A DNA stretch of 64,000 bases. Source: Thiomicrorhabdus sp. Its GTDB lineage: Bacteria > Pseudomonadota > Gammaproteobacteria > Thiomicrospirales > Thiomicrospiraceae. The notes below the pieces were generated by a model that made no database searches, had not been told where the DNA came from, and worked only from the letters and a program-made list of their open reading frames with translations. The DNA is taken from assembly GCF_963662555.1 (NCBI RefSeq), contig NZ_OY759719.1, positions 1,880,985-1,944,984 on the forward strand, read 5' to 3'. The translations under genes and the position numbers were made by a program. Positions within the stretch are counted from its first letter, which is position 1. Every line of letters starts with the position of its first letter. This document shows positions 112 to 56,930 of this stretch, one piece after another.

Positions 112-1236
112 CTAATTTTTAACATTTTCGTCGTTAAGATACTCAACAACCTCTTTAACACTTCCTTTAAAGACAACTGCATGGTTATTTTTTTGCATTT
201 GATAGTCGTACATTGGGTCGTAGTATTCGGCTAAAAGAGTTTTTATCCAGGCCTGGTGTTCTTCTGTTGAGTTTTGATTTAACTGAGCTTGCATAGCAAA
301 ATCAAATTGGCTCATGACTCTCTGATAACGCTCACCACCCAACCGTTTTTGAATACGTTGCATAGCGGCACGCATAAAGTCTTCCCATTCTGCAATATTG
401 TTATACTCGGCTTGTGCCTCAATAACATACTCATCCAATGTAATCGCAACACGCTCATCCATGGGAGTATCTACCACCACTCTTGAACCGCTTTTAAAGC
501 ATTCAAACAGTTCTTTAGAAAAGTTTACCGAGCCAATATTACGCCCTTCATCTTCAATCACTAACTGTTTAGGTTGTTTTTCCATAAAACGAATCAAGGC
601 CATAGCTAGATTGTTTTCAAAATTAATTTGTGTAGGTTGTGGTGTGGCGTGACGCCCAAAGGCCGAACCTCGATGATGAGCCAGACCTTCTAAATCAATG
701 GCATTGTTTAATTTATGAATTGCCAAGGTTTTACCTGAACCTGTTCTACCTGCTAACACAATCGGTTTTACATTTTGTTGATTTACCAGGCCTGGTAAAT
801 TATCTAAGTAATCAATTAAATAACGTCTAAAGGCTTTATAACCACCTTTTAACCGCACTATTTCACGCCCAGCATCTTGCAACCATTGTTGCGAAATTTT
901 TGAGCGCATACCACCTCTAAAACAGTAGAGTAATGCAGTTGGATTCGCATCCATAAACTCAATCCAAGACTGTACTCTTGGTTCACGGGTTTGCTCATTA
1001 ACCAACTTATGCCCCAACTCTACTGCTGCGGCATTGCCATTTTGTTTATAACAAAGCCCTACTTTTTGGCGTTCGTCATCATTCATTAATGGCAAATTAG
1101 TCGCAGAGTTAAATGCCCCCTGAATAAATTCTACTGGAGCACGCACGTCAATTAATGGCGTTTGATTTAGTACAATCGATTTAAAATCATCGGTCTGTGG
1201 CAGATCATTTGTAAACTCAGTAATCTGAACCGTCAT
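112..1236 (-). CDS. selU: tRNA 2-selenouridine synthase (MnmH/SelU)
   Basis: Replaces sulfur by selenium in 2-thiouridine at the wobble position of Lys, Glu and Gln tRNAs, using selenophosphate from SelD. The 374-aa protein has an N-terminal rhodanese domain with the active cysteine in LLYCFRGGMRS (about residue 105) and a C-terminal P-loop domain (VLAGRTGSGKT, about residues 161-171). Both are family hallmarks and the length is normal. The start ATG overlaps the selD stop as TAATG, so the two are translationally coupled. Its thiolated substrate is made by MnmA, also in this window (28.8 kb). The 20-bp palindrome at 781-800 lies inside the coding region and encodes Asn-Leu-Pro-Gly-Leu-Val-Asn; a near copy at 247-257 encodes Gln-Ala-Trp. 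Confidence 0.95.
   Translation of the reverse strand: MTVQITEFTNDLPQTDDFKSIVLNQTPLIDVRAPVEFIQGAFNSATNLPLMNDDERQKVGLCYKQNGNAAAVELGHKLVNEQTREPRVQSWIEFMDANPTALLYCFRGGMRSKISQQWLQDAGREIVRLKGGYKAFRRYLIDYLDNLPGLVNQQNVKPIVLAGRTGSGKTLAIHKLNNAIDLEGLAHHRGSAFGRHATPQPTQINFENNLAMALIRFMEKQPKQLVIEDEGRNIGSVNFSKELFECFKSGSRVVVDTPMDERVAITLDEYVIEAQAEYNNIAEWEDFMRAAMQRIQKRLGGERYQRVMSQFDFAMQAQLNQNSTEEHQAWIKTLLAEYYDPMYDYQMQKNNHAVVFKGSVKEVVEYLNDENVKN
781..800. repeat. iterated palindrome copy, 20 bp perfect, inside selU
   Basis: ATTTACCAGGCCTGGTAAAT is a perfect palindrome around the 12-bp core ACCAGGCCTGGT (785-796). It lies within the selU reading frame and is fully translated there. This is one of 11 exact core copies in the window. 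Confidence 0.9.
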
Positions 1237-2315
1237 TAAATGACCTCAACCACATGAGATTGCGAATCTGCGGCAACGGTCTTTCCAATAGGTTGCAAAT
1301 CTAAACCATGCTGAGCTGCAACCGCTTTAAATTCCGCTACCGCATCTTTACGAACTGCCGCTAATAAACCACCCGATGTTTGTGGATCACACAAAATCAT
1401 TTTTTTAGTTTCATTCAACACTCCTTCAGCAGGAGAGACTTTATGACCATAACTTGCATAGTTACGGCCTGTTCCACCAGGCGTACAACCTTGTTGTAAA
1501 TAGTTTAAAACGTGCGGCAAAATAGGCACTTTATCAAACTCAACTTGTGCGGCAATACCACTGCCCTCACAAATTTCTATTAAGTGACCTAAAATGCCAA
1601 AACCTGTTACATCGGTTAACGCAGTTACACCATCAATTTGGGCAAAATCTGCCCCTGGTTTATTCAAAGTTGTCATGGCTTCAATAGCCATTTCAAGATG
1701 TTCTGGTTGAATTTTTTTCTGTTTTTGAGCAGTGGTTAAAATACCAATACCAACCGGTTTGGTTAAAAACAACTCGCAATCCGCTTCTGCTGATGCATTC
1801 TTTTTAAGGTGTTTATTTTCAACAATCCCCGTGACGGCTAATCCAAAAATAGGTTCTGGTGCATCAATAGAGTGACCACCCGCCAATGGAATTCCCGCAG
1901 CTTCACAAGTTGCTCGCCCACCTTCAATCACTTGCTGACCCACTTCGGCAGGCAAAATATCAATAGGCCAGCCAAAAATTGCAATCGCCATAAGCGGCTT
2001 ACCGCCCATAGCGTAAATATCACTAATGGCATTTGTAGCGGCAATTTTCCCAAAGGTAAACGGGTCATCGACAATCGGCATAAAGAAGTCAGTCGTACTT
2101 AAAACCGAAGTCCCATTACCCAAATCATAGGCTGCGGCATCATCTTTCGTGCTATTGCCAACCAATAAATTAGGGTTAGGCACAATATTCATTGATGTCT
2201 TTAAAATGCTGTCTAACACCATTGGCGAAATTTTACAGCCACAACCTGCACCATGACTGTATTCAGTCAATTTAATGGATTGCGAAGCTGAGTCATTATT
2301 GGTTGTGTTTTGCAT
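1236..2315 (-). CDS. selD: selenide, water dikinase (selenophosphate synthase)
   Basis: Makes selenophosphate, the selenium donor, from selenide and ATP. The 359-aa protein carries the N-terminal catalytic motif HGAGCGCK with a normal cysteine, not selenocysteine, at the active position, followed by the AIR-synthase-like ATP-binding fold (for example [19 protein letters not shown]). Length is close to the E. coli protein. selU follows with a one-base overlap, which makes tRNA selenouridine the clear local use; selA and selB are not in the window. The 180-bp leader upstream holds one copy of the iterated palindrome (2390-2401). Confidence 0.96.
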
Positions 2316-2389
2316 GTAAATTTTCCTAAGTTTAAATCTGTTTTATGGTTTTACCCTGTGCTCACATAAGAAAAATGGCCACAGGACAT

Positions 2390-2401
2390 ACCAGGCCTGG
2401 T
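2390..2401. repeat. iterated palindrome copy between selD and rnhA-like gene
   Basis: Exact 12-bp core ACCAGGCCTGGT in the intergenic region 2316-2494. The flanks ATACC and GGTTAA are only partly symmetrical. Confidence 0.9.
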
Positions 2402-2494
2402 TAAATATTTAATTCTGTGTATTTTTTTATAAAACTAATATTTAAATTGATTTCTATCTGTTGATTTTTATTTGCTGATTTCTATCTTAGGGAC

Positions 2495-8490: not shown

Positions 8491-9261
8491 ATAAAATAAC
8501 ACCATCTGTTCATACACTTTTGGAAACACCCTTTTAAGAACAACAGGGGCTTCAAAAAAGTATTCGGTCACTACTGCAAAAAACTCTGCTGGGCTGGTTG
8601 CAGCATAAGGGTTTATATCAACCCTTGTCCCACTTTCAACCTGTTTACTAAGGTGATTAAAAGCCTCTTCAAAGGCATCAAACCAGGCCTGTTCATTCAT
8701 ATTAGAATGTAATGGCGGATGCCCATTGGTATTGCCATCAAGCATATCTATTTTATGCGCCATTTCATGCATTAACACTTGATTAGCGTGAGCTCTTAGA
8801 GGATGCGGTTCATCATCATTCCAATCAATCACAATACCACCTTGGTACTGCGTTTCACCCGATTCAAAAGCCAACTGACTCACCAAAATTCCACTTGGGC
8901 TAACGATATTATCTCTACCATTTAAAAATGGCATTGGGTAAACAATAATCTGATTCCAATTTCGCAACCAACTGTTTGCAGAACCCTCTTTATCCTCTTC
9001 AAAACCATAAACCATAATGGCGGCTTGAGTAGCAATCATCACCTTAATTTCATCGGTAAACTGCATACCTTTGACCGCAATAAAATGTTTGGTTCTAAGA
9101 ATTTCGCTGGCTAACAAACGTAACTGCATACGTTGCTGAGAGCTATAACGCTGCACAATAGGCATTTTGCTAATAGATTGATGCCACAATTTAAGCGGAA
9201 TTTTATGGCGTTTTAAATGACTGGCTAAAACGAGGTGTTGTATTTTAGTTATTATATTCAC
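8470..9261 (-). CDS. mtfA: MtfA-type zinc metallopeptidase (M90 family)
   Basis: 263 aa. It shows the zinc-peptidase helix LMHEMAHKIDMLDG (HExxH) with the downstream glutamate in PAEFFAVVTEYFF, and the family strand AIMVYGFEED. In E. coli, MtfA is a peptidase that also titrates the glucose repressor Mlc. Whether Mlc exists here is unknown, so the peptidase call is firmer than the regulatory one. The start ATG is followed by a basic amphipathic N-terminus (MNIITKIQHLVLASHLKRHK) with no signal peptide, so it is cytoplasmic. A one-mismatch copy of the palindrome (8682-8693) encodes Glu-Gln-Ala-Trp. Confidence 0.9.
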   Translation of the reverse strand: MNIITKIQHLVLASHLKRHKIPLKLWHQSISKMPIVQRYSSQQRMQLRLLASEILRTKHFIAVKGMQFTDEIKVMIATQAAIMVYGFEEDKEGSANSWLRNWNQIIVYPMPFLNGRDNIVSPSGILVSQLAFESGETQYQGGIVIDWNDDEPHPLRAHANQVLMHEMAHKIDMLDGNTNGHPPLHSNMNEQAWFDAFEEAFNHLSKQVESGTRVDINPYAATSPAEFFAVVTEYFFEAPVVLKRVFPKVYEQMVLFYKQNPLA

Positions 9262-9438
9262 TGATTAGTTATCTCTATTTCAAATTTTTGCACGAGTCTT
9301 CGACTAAAAAACAAGCGAGAAAACTGTATTCATTCTCGACTTATCTTTTCGGGCATCAGGTTCTAAATTTCTGTTTTTAATCGTACAAAGGCCTCTTATT
9401 CAATTAAGAGATTTATTGAAACTTAAGCCAAGTTTATA

Positions 9439-10911
9439 TTATTCGTATGAAACCGATTCTTTATTCACTTTTTTATAAATTAAGCTTCTATTCAACTCTT
9501 CTAGTGAATTACAACCTGATGCCGCAAGCAACTCCAAAAAATCTTCTAATATGTTTTTATGATAATTTTGAACTCTTTTGTATTTATCAGTCACTACTAA
9601 ACCTCTCATAAGTTTAGGGTTATTGGTGGCTACACCAGTTGGGCATTCATTGGTATTACATTTAAGCGACTGAATACAACCAAGCGCTAACATCATGCCT
9701 CTAGCCGAATTACAAACATCCGCCCCAATACAAAGTGCTTTAAAAATATCAAATGCTGTAAAAATCTTAGTGGCAGTAATCACTTTAATTTCTTCTTTTA
9801 GGTTATATTTATTGAGTGTATCTACTACAAATATCAAGGCCTCTTCCCACGGCATACCTACATAATTAGAAAAATCGATAGGAGCTGCCCCCGTCCCACC
9901 TTCAGCACCATCAACGGTTATGAAATCAGGTTTTATACCGCTTTCTACCATCATTTCGCATAGCTCAATAAATTCTTGCTTACTGCCTATAGACAACTTA
10001 AAACCAACAGGTTTAAAACCAGACAATTCTCTTAACTGTTTTACATATTCCAAAAGCCCTTTAGCATCTTTAAAAGTAGAATGCCCAGGAGGAGAAAGTA
10101 CATCAGTGTGAGGTAACACCCCCCTAATTTTAGCTATTTCTTCATTGTTTTTTGAGGCCGGAAGCACACCACCATGCCCTGGTTTTGCACCTTGTGAAAT
10201 CTTAATTTCAATCATTTTCACTTGTTCTAAATTTGCTTTTTCTTTGAACTTCTCTGCATCAAAATTACCATCAGGTGTTCGGCATCCAAAATAGCCTGTA
10301 CCAATCTCCCAAACTAAATCACCACCTTGCAAATGATATTCTGAAATACCGCCCTCACCTGTATCGTGAAAAAAATTTCCGGCTTTGGCACCTAAGTTTA
10401 ATGCGGTTATTGCATTTTTACTCAAAGCACCGTAACTCATCGCTGAAATATTGAATAGACTTGCACTATAAGGTTTTTGACAATCTTTTCCACCAATCAC
10501 AACTCTTGGTGGTGTTTGCATTTTTTTGGCAGGATAAATACTGTGTTGCATCCATTTATAATTATCATCATTTATATTCAACTCTGTACCAAAGGGATGA
10601 GTTTCATTTTGCTCTTTGGCTCTTTCATAGATGTAATTACGATGATTTCTATCAATAGGTTTTCCATCGGTATCTGACTCCACAAAATATTGATGCAGTT
10701 CAGGCCCAATCATTTCTAATAAATAACGCATGTGCCCAATGACCGGAAAATTTCTCAAAATTGAATGTTTCTTTTGAAACAAATCATAAAAGCCAATCAA
10801 TGCCAGCGAAATTGTAAGTGCAATAAACCCAGTTAAAGGCCATAAAGCGACACAGATAATAATGGCAAAAATCAATAATGCGATAAAAGTAAAAATAACA
10901 ATTTTCTTCAT
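9439..10911 (-). CDS. membrane-anchored FMN-dependent glutamate-synthase-like protein
   Basis: The 490-aa protein consists of two N-terminal membrane segments (residues 4-45) followed by the FMN/alpha-barrel domain of the glutamate synthase large subunit: a phosphate-binding region (GQGAKPGHGG-like SQGAKPGHGGVLPASK), TVDGAEGGTGAAP, and the 3Fe-4S cysteines in SLKCNTNECPTGVAT. It lacks the glutaminase domain and the GXGXG domain of full GltB, so it belongs to the stand-alone GltS-like family whose substrate is not established. It is flanked by the cassette array on one side and by a 177-bp gap with no visible gene on the other. Confidence 0.88.
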   Translation of the reverse strand: MKKIVIFTFIALLIFAIIICVALWPLTGFIALTISLALIGFYDLFQKKHSILRNFPVIGHMRYLLEMIGPELHQYFVESDTDGKPIDRNHRNYIYERAKEQNETHPFGTELNINDDNYKWMQHSIYPAKKMQTPPRVVIGGKDCQKPYSASLFNISAMSYGALSKNAITALNLGAKAGNFFHDTGEGGISEYHLQGGDLVWEIGTGYFGCRTPDGNFDAEKFKEKANLEQVKMIEIKISQGAKPGHGGVLPASKNNEEIAKIRGVLPHTDVLSPPGHSTFKDAKGLLEYVKQLRELSGFKPVGFKLSIGSKQEFIELCEMMVESGIKPDFITVDGAEGGTGAAPIDFSNYVGMPWEEALIFVVDTLNKYNLKEEIKVITATKIFTAFDIFKALCIGADVCNSARGMMLALGCIQSLKCNTNECPTGVATNNPKLMRGLVVTDKYKRVQNYHKNILEDFLELLAASGCNSLEELNRSLIYKKVNKESVSYE

Positions 10912-11013
10912 TGGATATCCTTGTTCACTTTTGTAACTATTTAGCTCAACTTAGCTTTAGTTTGTATCTATTATGTCTACTAGGTTTTTAGCTCTGCTAA
11001 TCTTTGAATTTGC

Positions 11014-11079
11014 AATTAACTTTGTCACGCTCATTTCAAGCACTTCCAAGAACGAGCCGGGTTGAGAGTATTTTTAGCC
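11014..11079 (-). repeat. degenerate attC site, distal end of the cassette array
   Basis: AATTAAC (11014-11020) and TTTAGCC (11073-11079) occupy the outer core positions. The inner sequence GCCGGGTTGAGAGTA resembles the attC sites at 14030 and 24217 (CGGTCGGGTTGAGTGA). The terminal GTT has become TTT, so this site may be inactive. It overlaps the end of the last cassette gene. Confidence 0.45.
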
Positions 11080-11529
11080 ATTACTTTTGTATGGATTCCA
11101 TTTGGAATGAAAATAGAAGCGTTTTACAAGAGCCTTTACCTTCTCTGTTCCACACCCTTCTGCTTTAATTATTTTTTTAACTTTATCTGTTAAGTACTCT
11201 GACTTCTTCTTCATCGCTTCATTAATTTGTTCTTTGGATTTTTTAGGATATCTTGACTCTAATTCCATAGAAGCTCGAATAGTTACCATTTGAAAGTTAG
11301 AAAGAAAATTTGTAAGAGTTTCATCATCTGGTTTTTCACAGGAGCTTGCTGCTGCATTTGTAATTACAAACATATCGAATATCTGCAATATATCTGGTCC
11401 TTTTTCAGCTCTGGCGACTCCAGTACTACTCATAAGTAAAGAGAGAATTAATAGAATGGTATTAAAAATTTTCAACTGATAGCTCCATTTATATCGATCA
11501 ATTTCAAAAAGGTTAACGCTTCGCTTCAT
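11074..11529 (-). CDS. hypothetical secreted cassette protein
   Basis: This 151-aa protein is not recognised. An unusually long N-terminus leads into a hydrophobic stretch (IFNTILLILSLLMSS) with a signal-peptidase-like ARAEKG site, so the mature part is probably periplasmic and about 105 aa. Mature features are a Lys-rich helical region and two cysteines (SSCEKP, AEGCGTE) that could form a disulfide. A GTG start six bases upstream (11535) is also possible; the ATG is chosen because AGGTG sits close before it. It is the last cassette on the glutamate-synthase-like side. Confidence 0.6.
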   Translation of the reverse strand: MKRSVNLFEIDRYKWSYQLKIFNTILLILSLLMSSTGVARAEKGPDILQIFDMFVITNAAASSCEKPDDETLTNFLSNFQMVTIRASMELESRYPKKSKEQINEAMKKKSEYLTDKVKKIIKAEGCGTEKVKALVKRFYFHSKWNPYKSNG

Positions 11530-11533
11530 GGTC

Positions 11534-11596
11534 ACCTGGCCGCGCGGAAGCGATTGTTACGTATTTTAATATTGCTTAATTGAAGTGCTGCTAGCA
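11534..11596 (-). repeat. truncated or decayed attC site
   Basis: CACCTGGCCGCGC (about 11533-11545) matches the arm of the attC family at 14030/24217 (CCAACCGGCCGCGC). GCTAGCA (11590-11596) sits exactly where the GTTRRRY core should precede the stop of the next gene. The remainder does not pair well, so this looks like an attC that has lost one arm. Confidence 0.35.
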
Positions 11597-12220
11597 TCAA
11601 TATTTACCTCCTTTTATAAGGAGCCAAATTGCAAATGACATTTCTCCCAAAATACTCGGAATAGCTACCATAGCCAAGAAAATTGACGCATAAGCCTCAT
11701 AATTTGGAAATACGAAATGGGCGGCAGTATCAACCATATACATGATGCCGGCAATAATGAGAAAAAATGCGATTATTTTTGGTTTCGCAATTATTTTTCC
11801 TAAAAGGATAAGATGAATACCAAAGAAGAAAAGCCCTAACAGCCAAATCGTATTAAAAGTATCAACTTGCTTTAGAATTTCTTCATTATTATTTAAAGTG
11901 AATACTGCAGGAAGAGCAAAAATTGCAACACCCATAATGGTTGCATGCATCATTCTAAATAGTGTACTTAAAACAGAAAGAGAGTGTTCTTTGAATAATT
12001 CATAAAGAGCCCATGCAACAATAACATCAAAAACTACTGTTATCATAAAGGCCATAATACCAGCACTCACCAAAGCATGACTTTGTTGCACAGTTGCTAA
12101 TGGATCCATCGCTAAAGATTCAAGAACAAAAAAATTGGCGAATATTGCTGCAAAGAAAATAATCCAGTAACTACCACCCGCTATCAAAGCATATGTTCTG
12201 GCACTGTATGTATTAGTCAT
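11597..12220 (-). CDS. DUF4386-like integral membrane protein
   Basis: 207 aa with about six hydrophobic helices and the pattern of the DUF4386 family: an N-terminal ARTYALIAGGSYWIIFFAAI helix and a long helix containing MAFMITVVFDVIVAWALYEL. The function of the family is unknown. An AAGGAAG ribosome site lies 7 bases before the ATG. It sits in its own cassette, with attC 12252-12372 upstream and a decayed site downstream. Confidence 0.75.
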   Translation of the reverse strand: MTNTYSARTYALIAGGSYWIIFFAAIFANFFVLESLAMDPLATVQQSHALVSAGIMAFMITVVFDVIVAWALYELFKEHSLSVLSTLFRMMHATIMGVAIFALPAVFTLNNNEEILKQVDTFNTIWLLGLFFFGIHLILLGKIIAKPKIIAFFLIIAGIMYMVDTAAHFVFPNYEAYASIFLAMVAIPSILGEMSFAIWLLIKGGKY

Positions 12221-12251
12221 TTTAATCTTCCTTAAATAGTCACATTCAACA

Positions 12252-12372
12252 CATAACGCCCAGTTAAGCAGAACTCAGTATAGAGCACCCTTTGTGCGAA
12301 AATGACGGAGCCATACGCAATAAGGTGCGGAGTGCTGAGCTTCCGGGCGAGCAGTTTGAACGCCTGTTATAC
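12252..12372 (-). repeat. attC recombination site (long type, about 121 bp)
   Basis: CATAACG at the outer left and GTTATAC (12366-12372) at the outer right, with long imperfect complementary arms (AGAACTCAGTA / GCTGAGCTTC region). It overlaps the 3' end of the VOC gene. Confidence 0.8.
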
Positions 12373-12783: not shown

Positions 12784-12805
12784 GATTTAAAATCTCCTTT
12801 TTTAC

Positions 12806-12877
12806 ACATAACGACCAAGCTGTACGGTGCAAACGAAGTGCAGCGTAGTTTGCGTCCGAACGAGCGCCTTGTTATGC
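12806..12877 (-). repeat. attC recombination site
   Basis: ACATAAC...GTTATGC outer cores (12806-12812 and 12871-12877). The inner arms contain the complementary GCAAAC and GTTTGC stretches. The pattern is shared with the attC at 16711-16771. Confidence 0.88.
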
Positions 12878-14005: not shown

Positions 14006-14029
14006 TTTCTCATTCCGATCCAATTTGAT

Positions 14030-14441: not shown

Positions 14442-14461
14442 GATTGACTCATCTTTTTAAA

Positions 14462-16200: not shown

Positions 16201-16224
16201 AAATTTACCAGGCCTGGTAAATTT
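16201..16224. repeat. iterated palindrome copy, 24 bp perfect
   Basis: The core ACCAGGCCTGGT (16207-16218) is extended by AAATTT on each side to a 24-bp perfect palindrome at the end of gene-less element A. It is the only exact copy lying between cassettes. Confidence 0.9.
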
Positions 16225-22587: not shown

Positions 22588-22591
22588 ATCA

Positions 22592-25560: not shown

Positions 25561-25580
25561 TTTTACCAGGCCTGGTAAAA
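25561..25580. repeat. iterated palindrome copy, 20 bp perfect
   Basis: TTTTACCAGGCCTGGTAAAA, core at 25565-25576, at the end of gene-less element B and only 57 bp from another copy inside the icd terminator. Confidence 0.9.
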
Positions 25581-25616: not shown

Positions 25617-25660
25617 AAAACCCGCAAGAATTACCAGGCCTGGTATAACTTGCGGGTTTT
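25617..25660 (-). terminator. icd terminator with the iterated palindrome as its apex
   Basis: AAAACCCGCAAG (25617-25628) pairs with CTTGCGGGTTTT (25649-25660). The enclosed apex contains an exact core copy (25633-25644), which itself folds, giving one long hairpin. Read on the minus strand it ends in a run of seven T, fitting rho-independent termination of icd. Confidence 0.88.
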
Positions 25661-28086: not shown

Positions 28087-28650
28087 ATGTCAAATCTACT
28101 TCTTTTTAACAAACCTTTTAATGTTCTTTGCCAGTTTACGGACGAATCCGAATTTAAAGAACAGCGTGAAACCTTGGCTGACTATATTGACCAACCAGGA
28201 TTTTATGCCGCAGGACGATTAGACCGTGATTCTGAAGGTTTATTACTGCTGACCGATGATGGTAAATTACAACAACAAATTGCCAACCCTAAAACCAAAC
28301 AACCCAAAACGTATTTGGTGCAAGTTGAAGGTGAAATTACTAAAGAAGCCATTAAACAACTTGAGCAAGGTGTTAAATTAAAAGATGGTTTAACCAGGCC
28401 TGCTAAATCTCGTAAAGTCTCTGAACCCAAGTGGCTTTGGGAACGTAACCCGCCCGTTAGAGAACGTAAAAACATTCCTACCAGTTGGCTTGAATTGACC
28501 ATTACCGAAGGCAAAAATCGCCAAGTAAGAAGAATGACTGCGGCGGTGGGTTTTCCGACTTTGCGTTTAGTGCGTATTCAAATTGGTCAGTGGAAACTGG
28601 GTAATCTTGCTTTAGGCGAATCAACACTTTTAAAAAATCAGTCTATATAA
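28087..28650 (+). CDS. rluE: 23S rRNA pseudouridine synthase, RluE type
   Basis: 187 aa RsuA-family enzyme with the catalytic motif [19 protein letters not shown] (Asp in GRLD) and the C-terminal [16 protein letters not shown]. It lacks an S4 domain, and the opening [14 protein letters not shown] fits RluE, which modifies U2457 of 23S rRNA in E. coli. A one-mismatch palindrome copy (about 28393) encodes Thr-Arg-Pro-Ala. The leader 28010-28086 has loosely repeated ATTAACC units. Confidence 0.9.
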
Positions 28651-30691: not shown

Positions 30692-30964
30692 ATGAACATT
30701 GAAATCATTTCTCAACCAAGTGAACAACAACTGGCTGAATTAGGCGTTTTAGATTGGCCTATCTGGGAAAAAGAAGCTTCTTCTTTTCCTTGGACTTATG
30801 ACATGAAAGAAGTTTGTTACATTTTACAAGGCCTGGTAACCGTTACCCCAGAACAAGGCGATGCGGTAACCATTAAAGCTGGCGATTTGGTCACCTTTCC
30901 TCGTGGCATGGTTTGTCATTGGGATATAGCTGAAGATATACGCAAACACTACCAGTTCATGTAA
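30692..30964 (+). CDS. small cupin (DUF861/cupin_3) protein
   Basis: 90 aa single cupin domain. WPIWEKEASSFPWTYDMKEV, CYILQGLVTVTPEQGD, IKAGDLVTFPRGMVCHWDI are the ordered strands of the cupin_3/DUF861 family, which includes ureidoglycolate-hydrolase-like and EutQ-like folds. Exact function is unknown. It follows hflD by 33 bp containing tandem repeats, and ends at a 40-bp palindromic terminator shared with ppiD. A one-mismatch palindrome copy (30826-30837) encodes Leu-Gln-Gly-Leu-Val. Confidence 0.82.
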   Translation: MNIEIISQPSEQQLAELGVLDWPIWEKEASSFPWTYDMKEVCYILQGLVTVTPEQGDAVTIKAGDLVTFPRGMVCHWDIAEDIRKHYQFM

Positions 30965-31021: not shown

Positions 31022-31061
31022 AAAAAAACCAAATTACCAGGCCTGGTAATTTGGTTTTTTT
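31022..31061. terminator. 40-bp perfect palindrome, bidirectional terminator
   Basis: A7-CCAAATTACCAGG followed by its exact reverse complement. The core iterated palindrome (31036-31047) sits at the centre. The feet are seven A and seven T, ideal for rho-independent termination in both directions. It lies between the convergent cupin and ppiD genes. Confidence 0.92.
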
Positions 31062-33161: not shown

Positions 33162-33173
33162 ACCAGGCCTGGT
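33162..33173. repeat. iterated palindrome copy in the ppiD/cheY-like divergent region
   Basis: Exact 12-bp core between divergent promoters (gap 33052-33336). Flanks are not symmetrical beyond the core, so a terminator role is unlikely here. Confidence 0.9.
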
Positions 33174-40947: not shown

Positions 40948-41913
40948 TTATCCATTATCAGCACATTGCTTCAATAGATTAACGACCAGCTCCACCCTTT
41001 GTTGAGCCGTGGTTTTGTATGGATCAATAATGGTAACGTCTTGTTCTTTACGTAACCATGTTAGCTGACGTTTTGCCAGTTGTCTTGTCGCAACCAGCCC
41101 TTTATAAATAAATTCTTCAAAATCATATTCCCCCATCATAAACAACCAGGCCTGGCGATAACCCACGCTGCGAATGGAGGTCATATCTTCATTTAAATCT
41201 CCACGTTCAAATAGCTTTTTGGCTTCTTGCAAAAATCCGTTTTCGACCATTTGCATAAAACGTTTCTCAATCTGCTTGTGGAGTTTTGCTCTATCTTCTG
41301 GAATTAAAGCAACCTTAATAAGCTCAAATTCTGGCAAACCTTTTTTAGGCTCTGCTCTAAACTCGGTTAAGGTTTTGCCCGTAACTTCATAAACCTCAAT
41401 CGCTCTAATTAATCGCTGTGGGTCATTTTTATGAATACGTTCTGCAGATTCAGGGTCTATATCCAGTAGCTTTTCATACAAAGCATCAGGGGTCTCATTC
41501 CATATTTTTAGCCACTTTTCACGGGTTTTTTCATCCGCCGAGGGTAAGTCAGACATACCTTGTTGCAAGGCATTAAAGTACATCATGGTTCCGCCAACTA
41601 AAATTGGTAAACGATTGCGGGCAAAAATCTCAAACACTAAACGATTCACATCATCCACAAAATCTGAGGCTGAATAGGTTTCACTGGCATCATGTGTATT
41701 AATTAAGTGATGCGGCACAGTATCTAATTCTTCTTGAGTTGGTTTAGCCGTACCTATATCCATATCTCTATATATAAGAGCTGAATCAACACTAATAATT
41801 TCAATAGGCATTTCTTCTGCCAGCAACATTGAAAGCTGGCTTTTGCCGGATGCAGTTGGCCCCATGATCGCCAAACACTGTTTGTTTTTTATTAATTTTT
41901 GCACTAAATCCAT
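40948..41913 (-). CDS. miaA: tRNA dimethylallyltransferase
   Basis: 321 aa. It adds the isopentenyl group to A37 of tRNAs that read UNN codons. P-loop GPTASGKSQLSMLLA, DSALIYRDMDIGTAKPT and the RLIRAIEVYEVTGKT motif are present. It follows mutL by 43 bp. The near-palindrome ACCAGGCCTGGC (about 41146-41157) encodes Arg-Gln-Ala-Trp in the C-terminal part. Confidence 0.97.
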   Translation of the reverse strand: MDLVQKLIKNKQCLAIMGPTASGKSQLSMLLAEEMPIEIISVDSALIYRDMDIGTAKPTQEELDTVPHHLINTHDASETYSASDFVDDVNRLVFEIFARNRLPILVGGTMMYFNALQQGMSDLPSADEKTREKWLKIWNETPDALYEKLLDIDPESAERIHKNDPQRLIRAIEVYEVTGKTLTEFRAEPKKGLPEFELIKVALIPEDRAKLHKQIEKRFMQMVENGFLQEAKKLFERGDLNEDMTSIRSVGYRQAWLFMMGEYDFEEFIYKGLVATRQLAKRQLTWLRKEQDVTIIDPYKTTAQQRVELVVNLLKQCADNG

Positions 41914-44115: not shown

Positions 44116-44135
44116 ATTTACCAGGCCTGGTAAAT
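44116..44135. repeat. iterated palindrome copy, 20 bp perfect, in mutL/mrp divergent region
   Basis: ATTTACCAGGCCTGGTAAAT with the core at 44119-44130. The gene-free stretch 43871-44319 holds this palindrome and otherwise AT-rich promoter-like DNA. No small gene is seen. Confidence 0.9.
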
Positions 44136-45581: not shown

Positions 45582-45597
45582 TTACCAGGCCTGGTAA
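45582..45597. repeat. iterated palindrome copy, 16 bp perfect
   Basis: TTACCAGGCCTGGTAA between the convergent mrp and STAS genes. No T-tract follows, so termination by this copy is uncertain. Confidence 0.9.
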
Positions 45598-48381: not shown

Positions 48382-48413
48382 TTACCAATTTACCAGGCCT
48401 GGTAAATTGGTAA
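48382..48413. terminator. 32-bp perfect palindrome after metG
   Basis: TTACCAATTTACCAGG followed by its exact reverse complement. The core copy (48392-48403) is at the centre. Only a short A/T foot follows, so it may terminate metG weakly or act in another way before rnfA. Confidence 0.8.
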
Positions 48414-49066: not shown

Positions 49067-49627
49067 ATGTTAGAAGCCATTCTTATTTTCGTTGGTCTAG
49101 CCATTTTATTCGGTTTATTGCTTGGTTATGCTTCAGTTAAATTTAAGGTTGAAGGCAATCCAACCGCTGAACGCATTGACAAAATCCTTCCACAAACACA
49201 ATGCGGTCAATGTGGGTTTCCTGGTTGTAAACCTTATGCTGAAGCTCTAGCTAAAGGTGAAACTGAGGTAAATCTTTGTATTCCCGGTGGCACTGAAGTG
49301 ATGATTCAAATCTCCGAAATCACCGGGCTAGAACCCAAAGAGATGGAAGTGGTAGAAGAGGAAGACAAACCTAAAGAAGTTGCCAAAATAAATGAGGATC
49401 TTTGTATTGGTTGTGTTCTATGTATTAAAGAATGCCCTGTTGATGCCATTTTAGGTGCAACAAAATTAATGCATACCGTGATTGAAAAAGAGTGTACTGG
49501 CTGCGAAAAATGTGTACCTGTTTGCCCAGTTGATTGTATTGAAATGGTACCTCTTGCCGTATCAACCAAAAACTGGAAATGGCCGGAACCTCAGCCTAAT
49601 TTAACAACACAAGGGAGTGAAAAGTAA
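49067..49627 (+). CDS. rnfB: Rnf complex subunit B (ferredoxin-like)
   Basis: 186 aa. It has an N-terminal membrane anchor ([20 protein letters not shown]), a four-cysteine cluster motif ([15 protein letters not shown]) and two 4Fe-4S ferredoxin motifs ([28 protein letters not shown]). The ATG at 49067 is chosen for its AGAGGA ribosome site; an upstream in-frame TTG overlaps rnfA. The stop overlaps the rnfC start as TAATG. Confidence 0.96.
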
Positions 49628-52191
49628 TGTCTCTTTTTGCTCAGATTGTTAATGTAATCGCTCCCATTTACCCTCAGGCAAAACGTTGGTTACACCGCTT
49701 TAATGGTGGGATTTTCCCAGCATATAATAAAGAGCTCTCTTCTCGCCAACCAATTAGAGAAGCCATAATACCTAGTCGCTTAATTATGCCCTTGCAACAG
49801 CAAGTGGGTTTACCTGCTGATTTATTGGTAAAAGTTGGCGATAAAGTTAAAAAAAATCAATTAATTGCCCGCTCTTCTAAAGATGCCAGTAAAGCCTTGG
49901 TTGTGCCCATTCATGCTCCAACCTCTGGAGTGATTACCGCAATTGAAAAAGTGACACTACCTCACCCTTCTGGTTTAGAAGATATCGCCATCATTATTGA
50001 ACCTGATCACTTAAATACCACTATTGAAAATGCACTTAAGGTTTCAGGAAATAAACCCCAGTCACCGCAAGAGCTAAAAGACATTTTGCTGAATGCCGGA
50101 ATTGTCGGTATGGGTGGTGCAGGTTTTCCAACCTATGCAAAGATTCCTGCTGAAAAAGGCAAAATTCATACCTTAATGATTAACGGTGCAGAGTGTGAAC
50201 CTTTTATCACTTGTGATGATTTACTGATGCAAACCGAGGCTGAATCAATTATTCAAGGAGCAATCATTACCGCTAATGCTCTAGGTTCAACCAAAATTTT
50301 ATGCGGCATAGAAACCAATAAACCAGCCGCAATCAAAGCGATGAAAGCGGCTGCTAAAGATACGATTATCCAAATTATTGAGGTAGAAACCGTTTACCCA
50401 ATGGGTGGGCAAAAACAGCTTACCCAAGAGTTAACGGGCATTGAAATGCCACACAAGGCACACGCTGTTGATATCGGTATGTTAATGATGAATGTGGCAA
50501 CATTTTCAGCTATCAACAAGGCTGTCACTCTTGGAGAACCTCTGACATCAAGATTAGTTAGTGTTACAGGCTTGGGGTTACATCGTCCTTTTAATATTCG
50601 TGCTTTAATTGGTACCCCTTTTGCAGAGTTAGCACAAGCGGCTGAACCCAAAATAGATCTCAACTATCCTTTAGTCATGGGTGGCCCAATGATGGGATTT
50701 GCCGTTAAATCTAACCAAGTACCTGTACTCAAAACCACCAACTGCATTTTAGCTAATCCACCAGAACCTACAGAAATGCAAATGCCGTGCATTCGTTGTG
50801 GTGAGTGCATGGATGCCTGCCCTATCAACCTTTTACCTCAGCAGATGTACTGGCATAGCCAAGCACATGAGTTTGATAAAGTTGAAAAGCTCAATATTTT
50901 TGATTGTATAGAATGTGGCTGTTGTAGCTATGTATGCCCAAGTCATATTCCACTTGTTCAATATTATCGAAACGCTAAATCAGAAATTAAAGAGATTCAT
51001 GCCGAAGAAAAAGCAGTTGAACTTGCTAAACAACGCCATGAATTTAAATTGGCACGTATTGAGCGTGAAAAACAAGAACGAGAAGAACGTCTCAGAGCTA
51101 AAAAAGAAGCGGTTAAAAAACAAGCCGCAAGTCAAAATACGACTGAAGATAATTCAAAAACCACGAAACCTGCTAGCTCAGCGGCGGCGGCCGCTGCGGC
51201 AAAAGCTGCTGCTGCCAAACGAGCCGCCGCAAAAGCTAATGCTAATACTTCAACGTCTCAGCAAAATACACAAGAAGATAATATTCCTCCAGCTCGCAGA
51301 AAAGCGATTGAAGCGGCCAAACAAGCCACTGAAAAAGCGGATGGTGCTAAAAACCCTAAAGATGCTGCTAAAAATGCAGCTATGGCCGCGGCTAAAAAAC
51401 GTGCTCAAGAAAAAGCTGCAGCAAAATCATTGGAAGGTAAAAATGTTAATTCTTCCGAGTTAACTCCAGAGTTAAAGCCTAAACCAACTCCAGATGAATC
51501 AACTAAAGCGGATCCCAAACAGGCCGCTAAAGCTGCAGCTATGGCCGCAGCGAAAAAACGTGCTCAAGCAAAAGCGAATAACGAAGCCGAACCCGATCAA
51601 AGCAAAGCGACAACCGAAGCGACAACCGAAGCGACAAACGAAGCGACAAACGAAACTCCAAATGAAGCCGTAAAAGAAGCTCAGCATGATGCCAAACAAG
51701 CCGCTAAGGCTGCGGCAATGGCTGCAGCCAGAAAACGTGCTCAGTCTAAAAAAGCAATCATACAAACTTTAGAAGTTCCCCCTATTGAAAGCAAACAAGT
51801 TGATGATCAAGAGATGGAACTTCAAGCTGAACAAGTAGTTCATAAAAAAGAGTTGTCCGAAAATATAGCAACAGACCTAACTCAAAATACTGAAGACACT
51901 GCCGCTTCAAAAAAAGAAGCGGCTCGTAAAGCAGCAATGAAAGCAGCTCGTGCTGCTGCTAAAAAACGTAATTCAGCAAATACATCAGTAAGTAAGCAAT
52001 CTGAACAACTTAACCAAGACAATTCATCAAGTTCAGAGAGCATTGAGCCTGCGGAGGATCAGGCAAACAAACCATCGCCTGAAGACAAAAAACGCAAAGC
52101 AATGGAAATGGCTAAACAAAAAGCGGCAGAACGTGCGGCACAAAAACAAGCTGAAAAGCTTGCATCAGAAACTCCTGAGGAGACTAAATAA
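49627..52191 (+). CDS. rnfC: Rnf complex subunit C with long Ala/Lys-rich repeat tail
   Basis: 854 aa. Residues 1-450 are the NADH/FMN-binding Rnf-C core with the glycine loop GMGGAGFPTYAKI and two 4Fe-4S motifs (CIRCGECMDACPINLL, CIECGCCSYVCPSHIP). From about residue 460 the protein is a charged helical tail in which the unit KQAAKAAAMAAAKKRAQ recurs about four times (near residues 578, 631, 688 and 761). Such tails occur in gammaproteobacterial RnfC/RsxC and vary in length. A 12-bp DNA repeat (51607-51654) lies in the tail. Confidence 0.95.
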   Translation: MSLFAQIVNVIAPIYPQAKRWLHRFNGGIFPAYNKELSSRQPIREAIIPSRLIMPLQQQVGLPADLLVKVGDKVKKNQLIARSSKDASKALVVPIHAPTSGVITAIEKVTLPHPSGLEDIAIIIEPDHLNTTIENALKVSGNKPQSPQELKDILLNAGIVGMGGAGFPTYAKIPAEKGKIHTLMINGAECEPFITCDDLLMQTEAESIIQGAIITANALGSTKILCGIETNKPAAIKAMKAAAKDTIIQIIEVETVYPMGGQKQLTQELTGIEMPHKAHAVDIGMLMMNVATFSAINKAVTLGEPLTSRLVSVTGLGLHRPFNIRALIGTPFAELAQAAEPKIDLNYPLVMGGPMMGFAVKSNQVPVLKTTNCILANPPEPTEMQMPCIRCGECMDACPINLLPQQMYWHSQAHEFDKVEKLNIFDCIECGCCSYVCPSHIPLVQYYRNAKSEIKEIHAEEKAVELAKQRHEFKLARIEREKQEREERLRAKKEAVKKQAASQNTTEDNSKTTKPASSAAAAAAAKAAAAKRAAAKANANTSTSQQNTQEDNIPPARRKAIEAAKQATEKADGAKNPKDAAKNAAMAAAKKRAQEKAAAKSLEGKNVNSSELTPELKPKPTPDESTKADPKQAAKAAAMAAAKKRAQAKANNEAEPDQSKATTEATTEATNEATNETPNEAVKEAQHDAKQAAKAAAMAAARKRAQSKKAIIQTLEVPPIESKQVDDQEMELQAEQVVHKKELSENIATDLTQNTEDTAASKKEAARKAAMKAARAAAKKRNSANTSVSKQSEQLNQDNSSSSESIEPAEDQANKPSPEDKKRKAMEMAKQKAAERAAQKQAEKLASETPEETK
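51607..51654. repeat. 12-bp tandem repeat (four units) inside rnfC
   Basis: GCGACAACCGAA twice, then GCGACAAACGAA twice, encoding Ala-Thr-Thr-Glu and Ala-Thr-Asn-Glu. A change in unit number would keep the frame. Confidence 0.92.
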
Positions 52192-53231: not shown

Positions 53232-53879
53232 ATGATGACGAATCCTAATCCTTCACAATCGTTGATTAAAACCATGTTCTCTTCAGCAGGTAAACTGACT
53301 TTTTTTGTGTTTATCAGCATTATTCTATTACTATCAATACGTTACGTGACTGCACCAGAAATACAACAAGCAGAAAGGCAAACCCTACTTAATACTTTTA
53401 GTGAAGTTTTGCCTAGTACTTATTATGACAATGACCCTTTAAAAAACACCAAAGTCATTACTGATCCAGCCTATTTAAAATTATTAGGCAGTTCTGAGCC
53501 AGTAACCTTTTACCGTGCTACTAAAAACAATCAACCTGCTGGTGCAATTTTTACTACTATTGCACCCAATGGTTATAGCGGTAAAATCTATGTACTGATT
53601 GGTGTTTTTCCAGATGGAAGAATCTCAGGTGTACGAATTATTAAACACACCGAAACACCAGGCCTGGGTGATAAAGTTGAAATTAATAAAAGTAAATGGG
53701 TGCTTGAATTTGATGGCCGCAATTTACGTGATGATAATGACCCTCGCTGGGCAGTTAAAAAAGACGGTGGCGATTTTGACCAGTTTACCGGTGCAACCAT
53801 TACCCCTCGTGCAGTCGTGGGAGCAATCAAAAATGCACTGATTGTGGTTAATGATTTAGGAGAACGATTATATGAGTAA
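53232..53879 (+). CDS. rnfG: Rnf complex subunit G
   Basis: 215 aa. It has one N-terminal membrane helix and a periplasmic FMN-binding domain ending in [15 protein letters not shown], whose second threonine is the covalent FMN site in homologs. An AGGAGCG ribosome site precedes the ATG. The near-palindrome ACCAGGCCTGGG (53658-53669) encodes Thr-Pro-Gly-Leu-Gly. Confidence 0.95.
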
Positions 53880-55339: not shown

Positions 55340-55771
55340 ATGTTTTATACCTCTGAAAGAGACAAGCTTAGACAATTTTATGTAGATACCTGGCAAAAGG
55401 CACGCCATGGTTTACCCATGGATGCCATGGAAACCATGGTGGCTAGAGTGATTGAATTACATCCTGAATATCACGCTATGCTAAGCAATGAAAAACATTT
55501 AGGTAATGAATACAAACCCGAAGATGGCGAAACCAATCCTTTTTTACATATGGGTATGCATCTAGGGCTACAAGAACAAGTTTCAATGGACCGCCCTGCT
55601 GGTATTCAAGCGGTTTACCAACAACTAGGTGAACGTTTAGGTGATGTTCATAAAACCGAACACGCCATGATGGACTGTTTAGCTGAGTCTTTATGGATCG
55701 CTCAACGTGATCAAGTTGAACCAAATGAACAAGCCTATTTACGCTGTTTACAGAATTTACTTTTTAAGTGA
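55340..55771 (+). CDS. DUF1841 family protein
   Basis: 143 aa soluble protein matching DUF1841: NPFLHMGMHLGLQEQVSMDR and HKTEHAMMDCLAESLW are the family signature. Function is unknown; histidines and acidic residues could bind metal. A degenerate palindrome (about 55297-55306, CAGGCCTGGT) lies in the spacer after nth. Confidence 0.87.
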   Translation: MFYTSERDKLRQFYVDTWQKARHGLPMDAMETMVARVIELHPEYHAMLSNEKHLGNEYKPEDGETNPFLHMGMHLGLQEQVSMDRPAGIQAVYQQLGERLGDVHKTEHAMMDCLAESLWIAQRDQVEPNEQAYLRCLQNLLFK

Positions 55772-55982
55772 GACCTTTACCTGAATTATGAACAAAAGAA
55801 AAATGTGAGAAAATTTATACTACTTGAGGCCTGAAACGCAGTTAATAGCTAGCTATTGACAAGTTTTAGAACGAAAAGCAGTGAAATTTTAGCCATTTTT
55901 ACTTGCTTATAATTCTGTGCAAAGGTCTCTAAATCTATTCTCAATTTTAGCTAGCCAATTTTTTAAGATTAAGGAATCATTT

Positions 55983-56909
55983 ATGTTTTATAACCACCTT
56001 AGCAACCAGAAACATTTTTCTGTTTTACCAGGCCTGTTAATTTTAATTATTGGATTTTTAAGCCTATTTTCTTTGCCTACTTATGCTGCAGACAACAATA
56101 TTTTTGTTAGTCCAAGTTGGTTAAAAAGTCATCAATCTAAAGTCAAAATCATAGATATGAGTGAGCGTGGTAATTATCAAAAATTTCATATTAAAGATGC
56201 TCTTTGGGTGAACTATGCTTGGCTAATCAAACCTCAAAATGGTGTCGAATTAAGTGGTGGGCCAAACTATATGGCCGATGTACTTTCTCAATTGGGCATT
56301 AAAAACAGTGACAACATTGTTATTTATGATGACATGGGAGGCTTACCTTCAAGTCGTCTTTATTGGGAACTTAAAAAGCTTAATCATGCCCAAGTGCACA
56401 TTTTAGACGGCGGTATTGTTAGTTGGGTTTTAGCTGGAAATCCGGTGACTCAAAAACGTCCTGTAGCTCCAAGCAAAACCCACTACCAGGCCCCTAAAAA
56501 AGATTTAACTAAATCCTTAACGGCTTATAAACAAGATGTTATTAATGCTAAAAAAGACAATGTGGTATTAATTGATGCACGTTCACAGGCCGAATATGTT
56601 GGTAACCCTAAACAAAAGCAGAGCGGGCATATTCCGGCTGCCTTATGGTTTGAATGGTCAAACGCGGTTAATTTAAGAGATGGTTACAAGCAATACCCAA
56701 AAGAGCAGCTATTACAAAAATTACGTGCCATTGGTGTTTATGATGTTAATCAACTAATTATTGTATATTGCAATACCGCACATAGAGCAGCCCGTAGCTT
56801 TACTATGTTAAAAAGCTTAGGCTTTAAAAAAGTAAAACTTTATGACGGCTCGATTCAAGAATATATGATGGATAAGTCTCTGCCTTTAAAACGAAGTGAC
56901 CGCCCTTAA
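55983..56909 (+). CDS. exported thiosulfate/3-mercaptopyruvate sulfurtransferase (tandem rhodanese)
   Basis: 308 aa from the ATG at 55983, which has AAGGA 8 bases before it; a GTG at 55917 is in frame but unlikely. A signal peptide (LLILIIGFLSLFSLPTYAAD) leads to two rhodanese domains. The first is inactive-looking (VIYDDMGGLPSSRLYW, no cysteine); the second has the active cysteine in IVYCNTAHRAARSF. It moves sulfane sulfur in the periplasm, consistent with a sulfur-oxidising lifestyle but not proof of one. A one-mismatch palindrome copy (about 56028-56039) codes for Leu-Pro-Gly-Leu within the signal peptide. Confidence 0.88.
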   Translation: MFYNHLSNQKHFSVLPGLLILIIGFLSLFSLPTYAADNNIFVSPSWLKSHQSKVKIIDMSERGNYQKFHIKDALWVNYAWLIKPQNGVELSGGPNYMADVLSQLGIKNSDNIVIYDDMGGLPSSRLYWELKKLNHAQVHILDGGIVSWVLAGNPVTQKRPVAPSKTHYQAPKKDLTKSLTAYKQDVINAKKDNVVLIDARSQAEYVGNPKQKQSGHIPAALWFEWSNAVNLRDGYKQYPKEQLLQKLRAIGVYDVNQLIIVYCNTAHRAARSFTMLKSLGFKKVKLYDGSIQEYMMDKSLPLKRSDRP

Positions 56910-56918
56910 ATAAATGGA

Positions 56919-56930
56919 ACCAGGCCTGGT
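56919..56930. repeat. iterated palindrome copy before the second RNase H gene
   Basis: Exact core between the rhodanese stop and the RNase H ATG, only 6 bases from that ATG, where a ribosome-binding site would be expected. AGG of the core may serve as a weak one. Confidence 0.9.

What the first reader, a model, noticed from the sequence alone, without database searches (positions are those of the whole stretch)
781..56930. Highly iterated palindrome ACCAGGCCTGGT across the window
The 12-bp palindrome occurs exactly 11 times (785, 2390, 16207, 25565, 25633, 31036, 33162, 44119, 45584, 48392, 56919), while a random 12-mer is expected about 0.004 times in 64 kb. At least seven more copies have one mismatch, several inside genes (selU 246, mtfA 8682, rluE 28393, cupin 30826, miaA 41146, rnfG 53658, rhodanese 56028), where it is read as Gln-Ala-Trp or Pro-Gly-Leu. 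It spans both strands and all gene classes, is usually flanked by TTT/AAA, and is absent from 57-64 kb. This resembles HIP1 of cyanobacteria or DNA-uptake sequences, yet the sequence is not one I know. It could be an uptake signal, a chromosome-organising protein site, or the footprint of a methylation system (it contains AGGCCT).
Basis: partly seen in the sequence, partly recalled or inferred. Interest (0 to 1): 0.9.

Follow-up and report, generated by a model that had tools for sequence, protein, structure and literature searches.

The report
Palindromic DNA self-signal with dialects
A 12-letter palindrome is scattered hundreds of times through this bacterium's chromosome, and its relatives carry altered versions or almost none; it looks like a signature that helps cells take up DNA of their own kind, which so far is documented in only two bacterial families.

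Summary
The window holds 11 exact and 7 one-mismatch copies. The closed 2.70-Mb genome holds 488 exact copies and none of the reversed control. A 464-kb sample holds 90, against 0.2 expected by an order-4 Markov model.

The motif is widespread in the family and patchy: at least 84 exact copies in 27 of 62 genomes. Relatives carry other dialects around a GGCC core: AACAGGCCTGTT, ACCGGCCGGT (1025 copies in one genome), a truly asymmetric AACAGGCCGGGT, and probably AGCAGGCCTGCT; 14 of 32 congeners have almost none of those counted. Copies are 7.5-fold denser between genes, close to gene 3' ends; about a quarter of the intergenic ones extend into long hairpins. Coding copies alter protein sequences by substitution.

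This resembles DNA-uptake signals (DUS/USS) more than an HIP1-type methylation footprint: C5 and D12 methyltransferase searches give no match in this genome, and one dialect is no palindrome. Uptake is inferred; no receptor was found and the ComEC pore does not track the motif. Best reading: a third, independent uptake-signal family, mostly palindromic. Confidence 0.6.

The parts
785..796 (.). exact copy ACCAGGCCTGGT (inside predicted gene 112-1236)
2390..2401 (.). exact copy, intergenic (tandem genes)
16207..16218 (.). exact copy, intergenic, palindrome extended to AAATTTACCAGGCCTGGTAAATTT
25565..25576 (.). exact copy, intergenic, on the 3' side of the isocitrate dehydrogenase gene (25693-27918, -)
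25633..25644 (.). exact copy inside a long hairpin (-24.6 kcal/mol, + strand) on the 3' side of the isocitrate dehydrogenase gene
31036..31047 (.). exact copy, 20-bp stem followed by a T-run on the + strand (-23.6 kcal/mol), terminator-like
33162..33173 (.). exact copy, intergenic (divergent ORFs), no motif stem in the predicted fold
44120..44131 (.). exact copy, mutL | apbC spacer; other dialects occupy this spacer in other species
45584..45595 (.). exact copy, intergenic (convergent ORFs), after apbC
48392..48403 (.). exact copy, just after metG; in four relatives the site overlaps the metG stop codon
56919..56930 (.). exact copy, intergenic (tandem)
246..257 (.). one-mismatch copy TCCAGGCCTGGT, coding
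8682..8693 (.). one-mismatch copy ACCAGGCCTGTT, coding
28393..28404 (.). one-mismatch copy ACCAGGCCTGCT, coding
30826..30837 (.). one-mismatch copy ACAAGGCCTGGT, coding
41145..41156 (.). one-mismatch copy ACCAGGCCTGGC, coding (40948-41913)
53657..53668 (.). one-mismatch copy ACCAGGCCTGGG, coding
56027..56038 (.). one-mismatch copy ACCAGGCCTGTT, coding

Best explanation
It is most likely a DNA-uptake signal: a self-identification sequence that a surface DNA receptor of the natural-transformation machinery binds, so that DNA of the same species or clade is taken up preferentially. Copies arise by point mutation and accumulate because fragments that carry one are taken up and recombined back more often (uptake drive). 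They settle where they cost least, between genes near 3' ends, where some of the palindromes double as terminator-like hairpins; in genes they bend the protein sequence to fit. When receptor specificity shifts, the set of sites turns over into a new dialect; when specificity is lost, the sites decay. Shown: abundance, dialects, contexts, origin of examined coding copies by substitution. Inferred: uptake, receptor, drive.
For: 488 exact copies in 2.70 Mb, reversed control 0; 90 in 464 kb against 0.2 expected at Markov order 4, and the other 89 palindromes of the same half-site letters total 2. At least 84 exact copies in 27 of 62 family genomes. Dialects with a constant GGCC centre. Dialect D (G003, 90 kb) is directional: CAGGCCGG 37 against 4.0 expected, while the symmetric CAGGCCTG is 1 (1.7 expected) and CCGGCCGG 4 (2.3), with flank conservation on one side only. 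46 of 90 copies lie in the 12.3% non-coding DNA (binomial p 5e-19); density falls from convergent (10 in 6.2 kb) through tandem (28 in 33.4 kb) to divergent spacers (5 in 13.7 kb). Intergenic stems extend 3.54 bp on average against 2.08 (sd 0.16, maximum 2.74 in 2000 flank shuffles); 11 of 46 extend by 6 bp or more. Coding copies: mutL Ile-Pro-Gly-Leu-Val only in four motif-bearing genomes, gap-free; gspM Asn-Gln-Ala-Trp in six of the seven A-dialect genomes in that alignment (in G008 the predicted gene starts later). ComEC is present in this genome. The same traits (dialects with a kept core, terminators, substitution origin, 65% coding in H. influenzae) are described for DUS/USS (introduction of PMC12616744; passages of PMC3630211 and PMC1626085).
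Against: No uptake experiment. No receptor found: ComP_DUS PF16732 is over cut-off in 0 of 32 genomes (its control genomes also gave 0 of 14, so the profile was not validated here) and the GspH profile found nothing useful. ComEC is present in 16 of 18 motif-bearing and also in 12 of 14 motif-poor genomes of the genus, so competence genes do not predict the motif. The main dialect is symmetric, unlike DUS/USS cores. Coding copies show no bias to gene ends (deciles 4, 3, 11, 6, 4, 0, 4, 4, 4, 4), whereas USS in Pasteurellaceae are biased to gene termini (abstract of PMC2346458). A search for Thiomicrospira with 'natural competence' gave one unrelated paper.
Confidence: 0.6

Rival explanations
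1. Binding site of a dimeric cytoplasmic DNA-binding protein (nucleoid organiser, SlmA- or Noc-like, or a global regulator) that reads the two-fold symmetric site with its A-tract flanks.
For: Two-fold symmetric 12-mer with A/T flanks about one helical turn from the centre in dialects A, B and C; preference for intergenic DNA.
Against: Dialect D is asymmetric, and the symmetric recombinations of its halves are not clearly enriched. None of the 21 sampled stretches is empty, 1 to 8 copies per 20-kb stretch. Lowest density in divergent (promoter) spacers. About half the copies are in genes and some alter proteins. Hundreds of sites differ or are missing in related species.
Confidence: 0.2
2. HIP1-like highly iterated palindrome maintained through a cognate orphan DNA methyltransferase and repair or recombination.
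For: Cyanobacterial HIP1 is a palindrome, is replaced by alternate palindromes in some genomes and tracks methyltransferases (abstract and passages of PMC4390886). The motif contains GGCC and AGGCCT. 7 of the 18 motif-bearing genomes of the genus do have a C5 methyltransferase over cut-off.
Against: PF00145 and PF02086 give no match in this genome; 8 of 18 motif-bearing genomes have neither. Dialect D is not a palindrome. Other methyltransferase families were not tested.
Confidence: 0.1
3. A stereotyped transcription-terminator stem or other RNA-level signal.
For: 3'-end bias, convergent-spacer enrichment and stem extension; clear hairpins at 25633, 31036, 48392. In D, 9 of 10 exact coding copies are co-oriented with the gene (hand count).
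Against: 44 of 90 copies are inside genes; 12 bp of strict sequence is more than a stem needs; in D, 3 of the 5 exact intergenic copies lie in divergent spacers and one runs against its tandem neighbours (hand count). More likely a secondary use.
Confidence: 0.05
4. Remnants of a mobile repeat family (REP/MITE-like).
For: Many copies, palindromic.
Against: No strong sequence conservation beyond the A/T flanks; examined coding copies in conserved columns align without insertion to motif-free orthologues; intergenic flanks are diverged while the 12-mer stays.
Confidence: 0.01

Closest known systems
DNA uptake sequences (DUS) of Neisseriaceae
   Same: 10-12 bp, hundreds of copies, dialects by clade with a kept inner core, intergenic copies as stem-loops linked to terminators (passages of PMC3630211; introduction of PMC12616744)
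   Different: unrelated sequence; most dialects palindromic, so one copy is its own inverted pair; no ComP_DUS-type receptor found by profile; different family
Uptake signal sequences (USS) of Pasteurellaceae
   Same: short core with A/T-rich flanks, made by substitution in genes not insertion, 65% of H. influenzae copies coding (passages of PMC1626085; introduction of PMC12616744); one orientation favoured in reading frames (abstract of PMC2346458), as in dialect D
   Different: unrelated core; flanks on both sides in A, B and C; no bias of coding copies to gene ends; receptor unknown
HIP1 and alternate HIPs of cyanobacteria
   Same: highly iterated palindromes that can be replaced by another palindrome in some genomes (abstract and passages of PMC4390886)
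   Different: 12 bp, one dialect asymmetric, intergenic and 3'-end bias, no C5 or D12 methyltransferase match in this genome

Membership tests
DUS/USS-type uptake signal (as a functional kind) | hundreds to thousands of exact 9-12 bp copies far above expectation | tested here: met
   488 genome-wide; 90 against 0.2 expected at order 4 in 464 kb
DUS/USS-type uptake signal (as a functional kind) | dialects that share an inner core and follow clades | tested here: met
   GGCC core kept; clades broadly follow, but A species fall in two groups on the tree
DUS/USS-type uptake signal (as a functional kind) | copies arise by substitution, not insertion | tested here: met
   gap-free codon columns in mutL and a gene of the rnf region; several other sites fall in poorly aligned stretches and say nothing (printed in part)
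DUS/USS-type uptake signal (as a functional kind) | intergenic and terminator association | tested here: met
DUS/USS-type uptake signal (as a functional kind) | directional (non-palindromic) motif, as in DUS and USS | tested here: inconclusive
   not so in dialects A, B, C; so in D
DUS/USS-type uptake signal (as a functional kind) | competence machinery present | tested here: inconclusive
   ComEC in 28 of 32 genomes of the genus: 16 of 18 motif-bearing, 12 of 14 motif-poor
DUS of Neisseriaceae | ComP receptor (PF16732) | tested here: not met
   0 of 32 genomes over cut-off, one weak match in motif-poor G031; control genomes 0 of 14
USS of Pasteurellaceae | coding copies biased to gene termini | tested here: not met
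   deciles of 44 coding copies 4, 3, 11, 6, 4, 0, 4, 4, 4, 4; feature from the abstract of PMC2346458
DUS/USS-type uptake signal (as a functional kind) | motif raises DNA uptake or transformation | not testable with these tools
   needs an uptake assay
HIP1 / alternate HIP | palindromic sequence | tested here: inconclusive
   true of A, B, C; false of D
HIP1 / alternate HIP | cognate DNA methyltransferase in the genome | tested here: inconclusive
   PF00145 and PF02086 give no match in G000; other methyltransferase families not tested
Chi / KOPS polar motifs | strong strand bias along replichores | tested here: not met
   A is a palindrome; D-bearing G003 has 278 forward and 278 reverse matches of the degenerate pattern, on contigs of unknown orientation, and both orientations mix within 80 kb
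REP/MITE mobile repeats | longer repeat unit, copies as insertions | tested here: not met
SlmA/Noc-type chromosome-organising sites | positional bias along the chromosome (feature recalled) | tested here: inconclusive
   1 to 8 copies in each of 20 sampled 20-kb stretches, none empty; about 19% of the genome seen

The most novel reading that the evidence does not exclude
A third, independently evolved family of DNA-uptake signals, in a family of Thiomicrospira-like Gammaproteobacteria, whose commonest form is a perfect palindrome (one copy is its own inverted pair) read through its GGCC centre and A-tract flanks, and which in one lineage broke its symmetry into a directional 12-mer. Four clear dialects, a probable fifth and repeated loss inside one genus would make it a fast-turning self-recognition code for transformation.
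Probability: 0.5. Interest if true: 0.9.

Novelty: new variant of a known kind. Interest (0 to 1): 0.8.

Why it matters
The introduction of PMC12616744 (2025; [quoted passage not shown] A third family, with several dialects and repeated losses inside one genus, would give a natural experiment on how receptor and genome-wide signal coevolve, how a set of about 500 to 1000 sites turns over, and whether uptake specificity is held by selection or by drive. Searches for the literal 12-mer, for Thiomicrospira with 'natural competence', for uptake sequences with Hydrogenovibrio, Thiomicrospira or Thiomicrorhabdus (none of the 20 of 134 papers listed held an uptake-sequence term) and for Thiomicrospira with 'palindrom' (20 of 24 listed, titles and abstract starts seen) showed no earlier description. 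They cover open-licence papers only.

Tried and rejected
Receptor hunt. A four-pilin cluster first looked informative because G010 (motif-poor) seemed to lack it; its translation looks like the pseudopilins of a type II secretion operon (recognised by eye, no family search), so the lead was dropped. A second cluster of large pilins beside ribosomal protein genes occurs in motif-bearing and motif-poor species alike. PF16732 and PF12019 were uninformative; PF12019 matched only 3 of 32 genomes, so it misses pseudopilins that are plainly there.

Mobile-element and Chi readings were rejected for the reasons in the membership rows. Even spacing: G000 and G001 are indistinguishable from random (CV 0.94 and 0.93); only G037, of another genus, is more even (CV 0.64, 0 of 5000 random sets as even) (100, 99 and 64 positions typed from the capped lists, the last by the degenerate pattern). 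Viral contigs: TTACCAGGCCTGGTAA was found in 4 stretches of that collection; no chance expectation was computed. The order level added nothing: it held the same 62 genomes. MutL in genome contigs returned only 2 loci, both labelled Thiomicrospira sp.. Passages of PMC6501319 on repeats, uptake and competence say nothing of the motif.

Limits. 14 genomes are called motif-poor by the counted patterns. Seven of them (G005, G009, G010, G011, G023, G030, G031) were sampled over 72-112 kb without another dialect appearing; the other seven (G018, G019, G020, G021, G024, G025, G026) over at most 20 kb, so an unknown dialect there is not excluded. One fetched stretch was all N and was left out of the counts. 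G015 was left out of the tree (short contig) and nine further genomes of the genus were not fetched around apbC. Gene calls are from my own ORF/hexamer script. Searches were printed only in part.


Full report
OBSERVATION. ACCAGGCCTGGT occurs 11 times exactly and 7 times with one mismatch in the window; dinucleotide shuffles give a mean of 0.06. The window is part of a closed chromosome of 2,696,250 bp (G000) with 488 exact copies and 0 of the reversed control. In a sample of 464 kb (the window plus 20 evenly spaced 20-kb stretches) there are 90 copies; Markov models of order 1 to 4 expect 0.01 to 0.2 and order 5, which has partly learned the motif, 4.6; the 89 other palindromes built from the same half-site letters total 2 copies. 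45 further places have one mismatch and 44 two. None of the sampled stretches is empty: 1 to 8 copies in each of the 20.

ORGANISM. The genome's relatives are unnamed. One of them (G029) has a contig of the same length (85,468 bp) as a MAG record labelled Thiomicrospira sp., whose MutL is 81% identical to the window's. I take the family to be that of Thiomicrospira and its relatives (inference).

DISTRIBUTION. Of 32 genomes of the genus (this one included), 10 have 84 to 718 exact copies. A degenerate pattern AMCAGGCCKGKT adds 7 with 58 to 287 forward matches (G003, G004, G014, G017, G022, G027, G028); in six of these the matches are mostly other forms, in G022 38 of 71 are the exact A form. 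One (G007) has 1025 copies of ACCGGCCGGT, against at most 15 in any other family genome. 14 have 6 or fewer matches of the degenerate pattern. Outside the genus, 7 of 11 species of g3 (93-515), 9 of 9 of g6 (181-688) and the one of g7 (289) carry ACCAGGCCTGGT; four species of g3 have 0, and g2, g4 and g5 (9 genomes) 0 to 3. The simplest reading is that the motif is old in the family and was lost or replaced repeatedly. In G009 and G011, relatives of G007 without a motif of their own, ACCGGCCGGT stands at 15 against 3 and 2 for the reversed control, which may be relics of dialect C; but G041 and G046 of g3 have 12 and 14 with controls of 10 and 8, so this is weak.

DIALECTS. K-mer enrichment in fetched stretches gives A ACCAGGCCTGGT; B AACAGGCCTGTT (G027, mixed in G004 and G028); C ACCGGCCGGT (G007); D AACAGGCCGGGT (G003, G017). 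G022 probably uses AGCAGGCCTGCT: 7 of its 20 core sites in 54 kb, against 1 exact A form; that MAG is listed as 8% contaminated. All keep GGCC at the centre, with A-tracts about 10 to 12 bp from it. A 22-taxon tree from nine syntenic genes puts the A species G000, G006, G008, G012, G013 and G029 together, with weakly enriched G014 and motif-poor G010 as the next branches; two further A species (G001, G002) form a separate clade; B, D and G022 cluster, with D next to a B-like species; C lies inside an otherwise motif-poor clade. The node that would place G001/G002 has a support of only 0.23. In G003 the asymmetric core CAGGCCGG is 37 against 4.0 expected while CAGGCCTG is 1 (1.7 expected) and CCGGCCGG 4 (2.3). 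The extended form is AAAAAACTCAACAGGCCGGGT with conservation on the left flank only. A reader of D therefore has a direction. This is the strongest single argument against models that need a palindrome.

CONTEXT. 46 of 90 exact copies lie in the 12.3% of the sample that is not coding by my gene caller, a 7.5-fold excess per base (p 5e-19). Densities are highest in convergent spacers (10 in 6.2 kb), then tandem (28 in 33.4 kb), lowest in divergent (5 in 13.7 kb); 3 are at stretch edges. Median distance: 52 nt from an adjacent gene end (48 values), 140 nt from an adjacent start (38 values). Stem pairing continues beyond the 12-mer by 3.54 bp on average in intergenic copies, against 2.08 (sd 0.16) when flanks are shuffled among sites; 11 of 46 extend by 6 bp or more, but only 1 of 44 coding copies. 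Window sites 25633, 31036 and 48392 fold into stems of -24.6, -23.6 and -17.9 kcal/mol on the + strand, while 2390, 33162 and 56919 form no motif stem or only a weak one. So the terminator-like role fits some copies and is not general. Coding copies are not biased to gene ends.

EVOLUTION OF SITES. A 20-kb stretch around apbC keeps nearly the same gene order in the genomes compared (22 besides this one; G015 and G029 are short). The mutL|apbC spacer carries A in several species, B in G027, D in G003 and C in G007. The metG 3' spacer carries A in G000, G013, G008, G012, G006 and G029; in four of these the copy overlaps the metG stop codon (TAACCAGGCCTGGT) while flanks have diverged. The motif-poor genomes G005, G009, G010, G011, G023, G030 and G031 show no dialect copy in the whole stretch; nor do G004, G014 and G022, which carry motifs elsewhere. 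In genes, codon alignments show copies made by substitution: mutL has Ile-Pro-Gly-Leu-Val in G013, G008, G012 and G029 and other residues elsewhere, also in the A species G000 and G006; a gene of the rnf region has Gln-Ala-Trp in G012 and G028 where the other aligned genomes have Gln-Ala-Tyr/His; gspM starts with Asn-Gln-Ala-Trp in six of the seven A species in that alignment (in G008 the predicted gene starts later), Gln-Ala-Trp also in G022, G004 and G028, and other residues in the motif-poor ones (output partly cut; gene names gspM and rnf by eye). The protein bends to the motif.

MECHANISM. I propose an uptake signal: a receptor on the transformation apparatus binds the motif, motif-bearing fragments are taken up preferentially, and recombination spreads the motif. 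Shown here: abundance, dialects, a directional dialect, contexts, substitution origin at the examined sites, and ComEC in G000. Inferred: receptor, uptake preference, drive. Against it: ComEC is found in 16 of 18 motif-bearing and 12 of 14 motif-poor genomes, so competence genes do not predict the motif (the four without are G016, G017 and G024, fragmented genomes listed as 79-92% complete, and the nearly complete motif-poor G030); no ComP-like receptor was found (a profile whose controls also stayed silent); the main dialect is symmetric. Methylation: no C5 match and no D12 match in G000; 8 of the 18 motif-bearing genomes (G000, G002, G004, G006, G007, G017, G027, G029) have neither; 7 of the 18 have a C5 enzyme over cut-off and G013 a sub-threshold match, so absence is not universal; other methyltransferase families were not tested. 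A cytoplasmic dimer remains possible for A, B and C.

COMPARISON WITH KNOWN SYSTEMS. The DUS/USS literature seen here (abstract and introduction of PMC12616744; passages of PMC3630211 and PMC1626085; abstract of PMC2346458) describes hundreds to thousands of copies, dialects with a kept core, inverted pairs as terminators, substitution origin, and one favoured orientation in reading frames. The last has a parallel in D: 9 of 10 exact coding copies in the G003 stretches are co-oriented with the gene (hand count). HIP1 (abstract and passages of PMC4390886) is the nearest palindromic precedent, with alternate palindromes tied to methyltransferases. I do not file the motif as DUS, USS or HIP1: ComP was tested and not met, the USS core and terminus bias are different, and no methyltransferase of the two families tested is in this genome. 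It works like an uptake signal.

NOVELTY. Paper searches for the literal 12-mer and for uptake sequences, palindromes or natural competence with Thiomicrospira and relatives showed no earlier description in the open-licence library, as far as the listings go; subscription papers and the 2006 Thiomicrospira crunogena genome paper (recalled; not held) could not be checked.

Noticed in passing
window 9400-25400: Row of short, mostly minus-strand ORFs separated by imperfect 41-75 bp repeats (14033-14089 and 24220-24276; 17976, 18942, 22510; 12838 and 16732) that look like attC sites of an integron cassette array (resemblance recalled, not tested). 6 of 8 proteins scanned there have no NCBIfam match. 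No integrase among the proteins scanned.
   Followed up: no
window 15981-16218 and 25295-25576: Two about 80% identical stretches (repeats D1 and D12) about 9.3 kb apart in the middle and at the end of the putative cassette array, each next to an exact motif copy.
   Followed up: no
window 51190-51990: Degenerate repeats (62-bp and 12-bp units) inside the 49627-52191 ORF.
   Followed up: no
   Followed up: partly
L192, L193, L202, L204, L205, L206: Cluster of unusually large pilin-like proteins (about 250 to 560 aa) near genes that look like rpsI/rplM (by eye) in several genomes; function unknown.
   Followed up: partly
G037 (genus g3): Motif copies are spaced more evenly than random (CV 0.64, 0 of 5000 random sets as even, 64 positions), unlike G000 and G001.
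   Followed up: partly
G009 and G011: ACCGGCCGGT 15 copies each against 3 and 2 of the reversed control: possible relics of dialect C in motif-poor relatives of G007.
   Followed up: no
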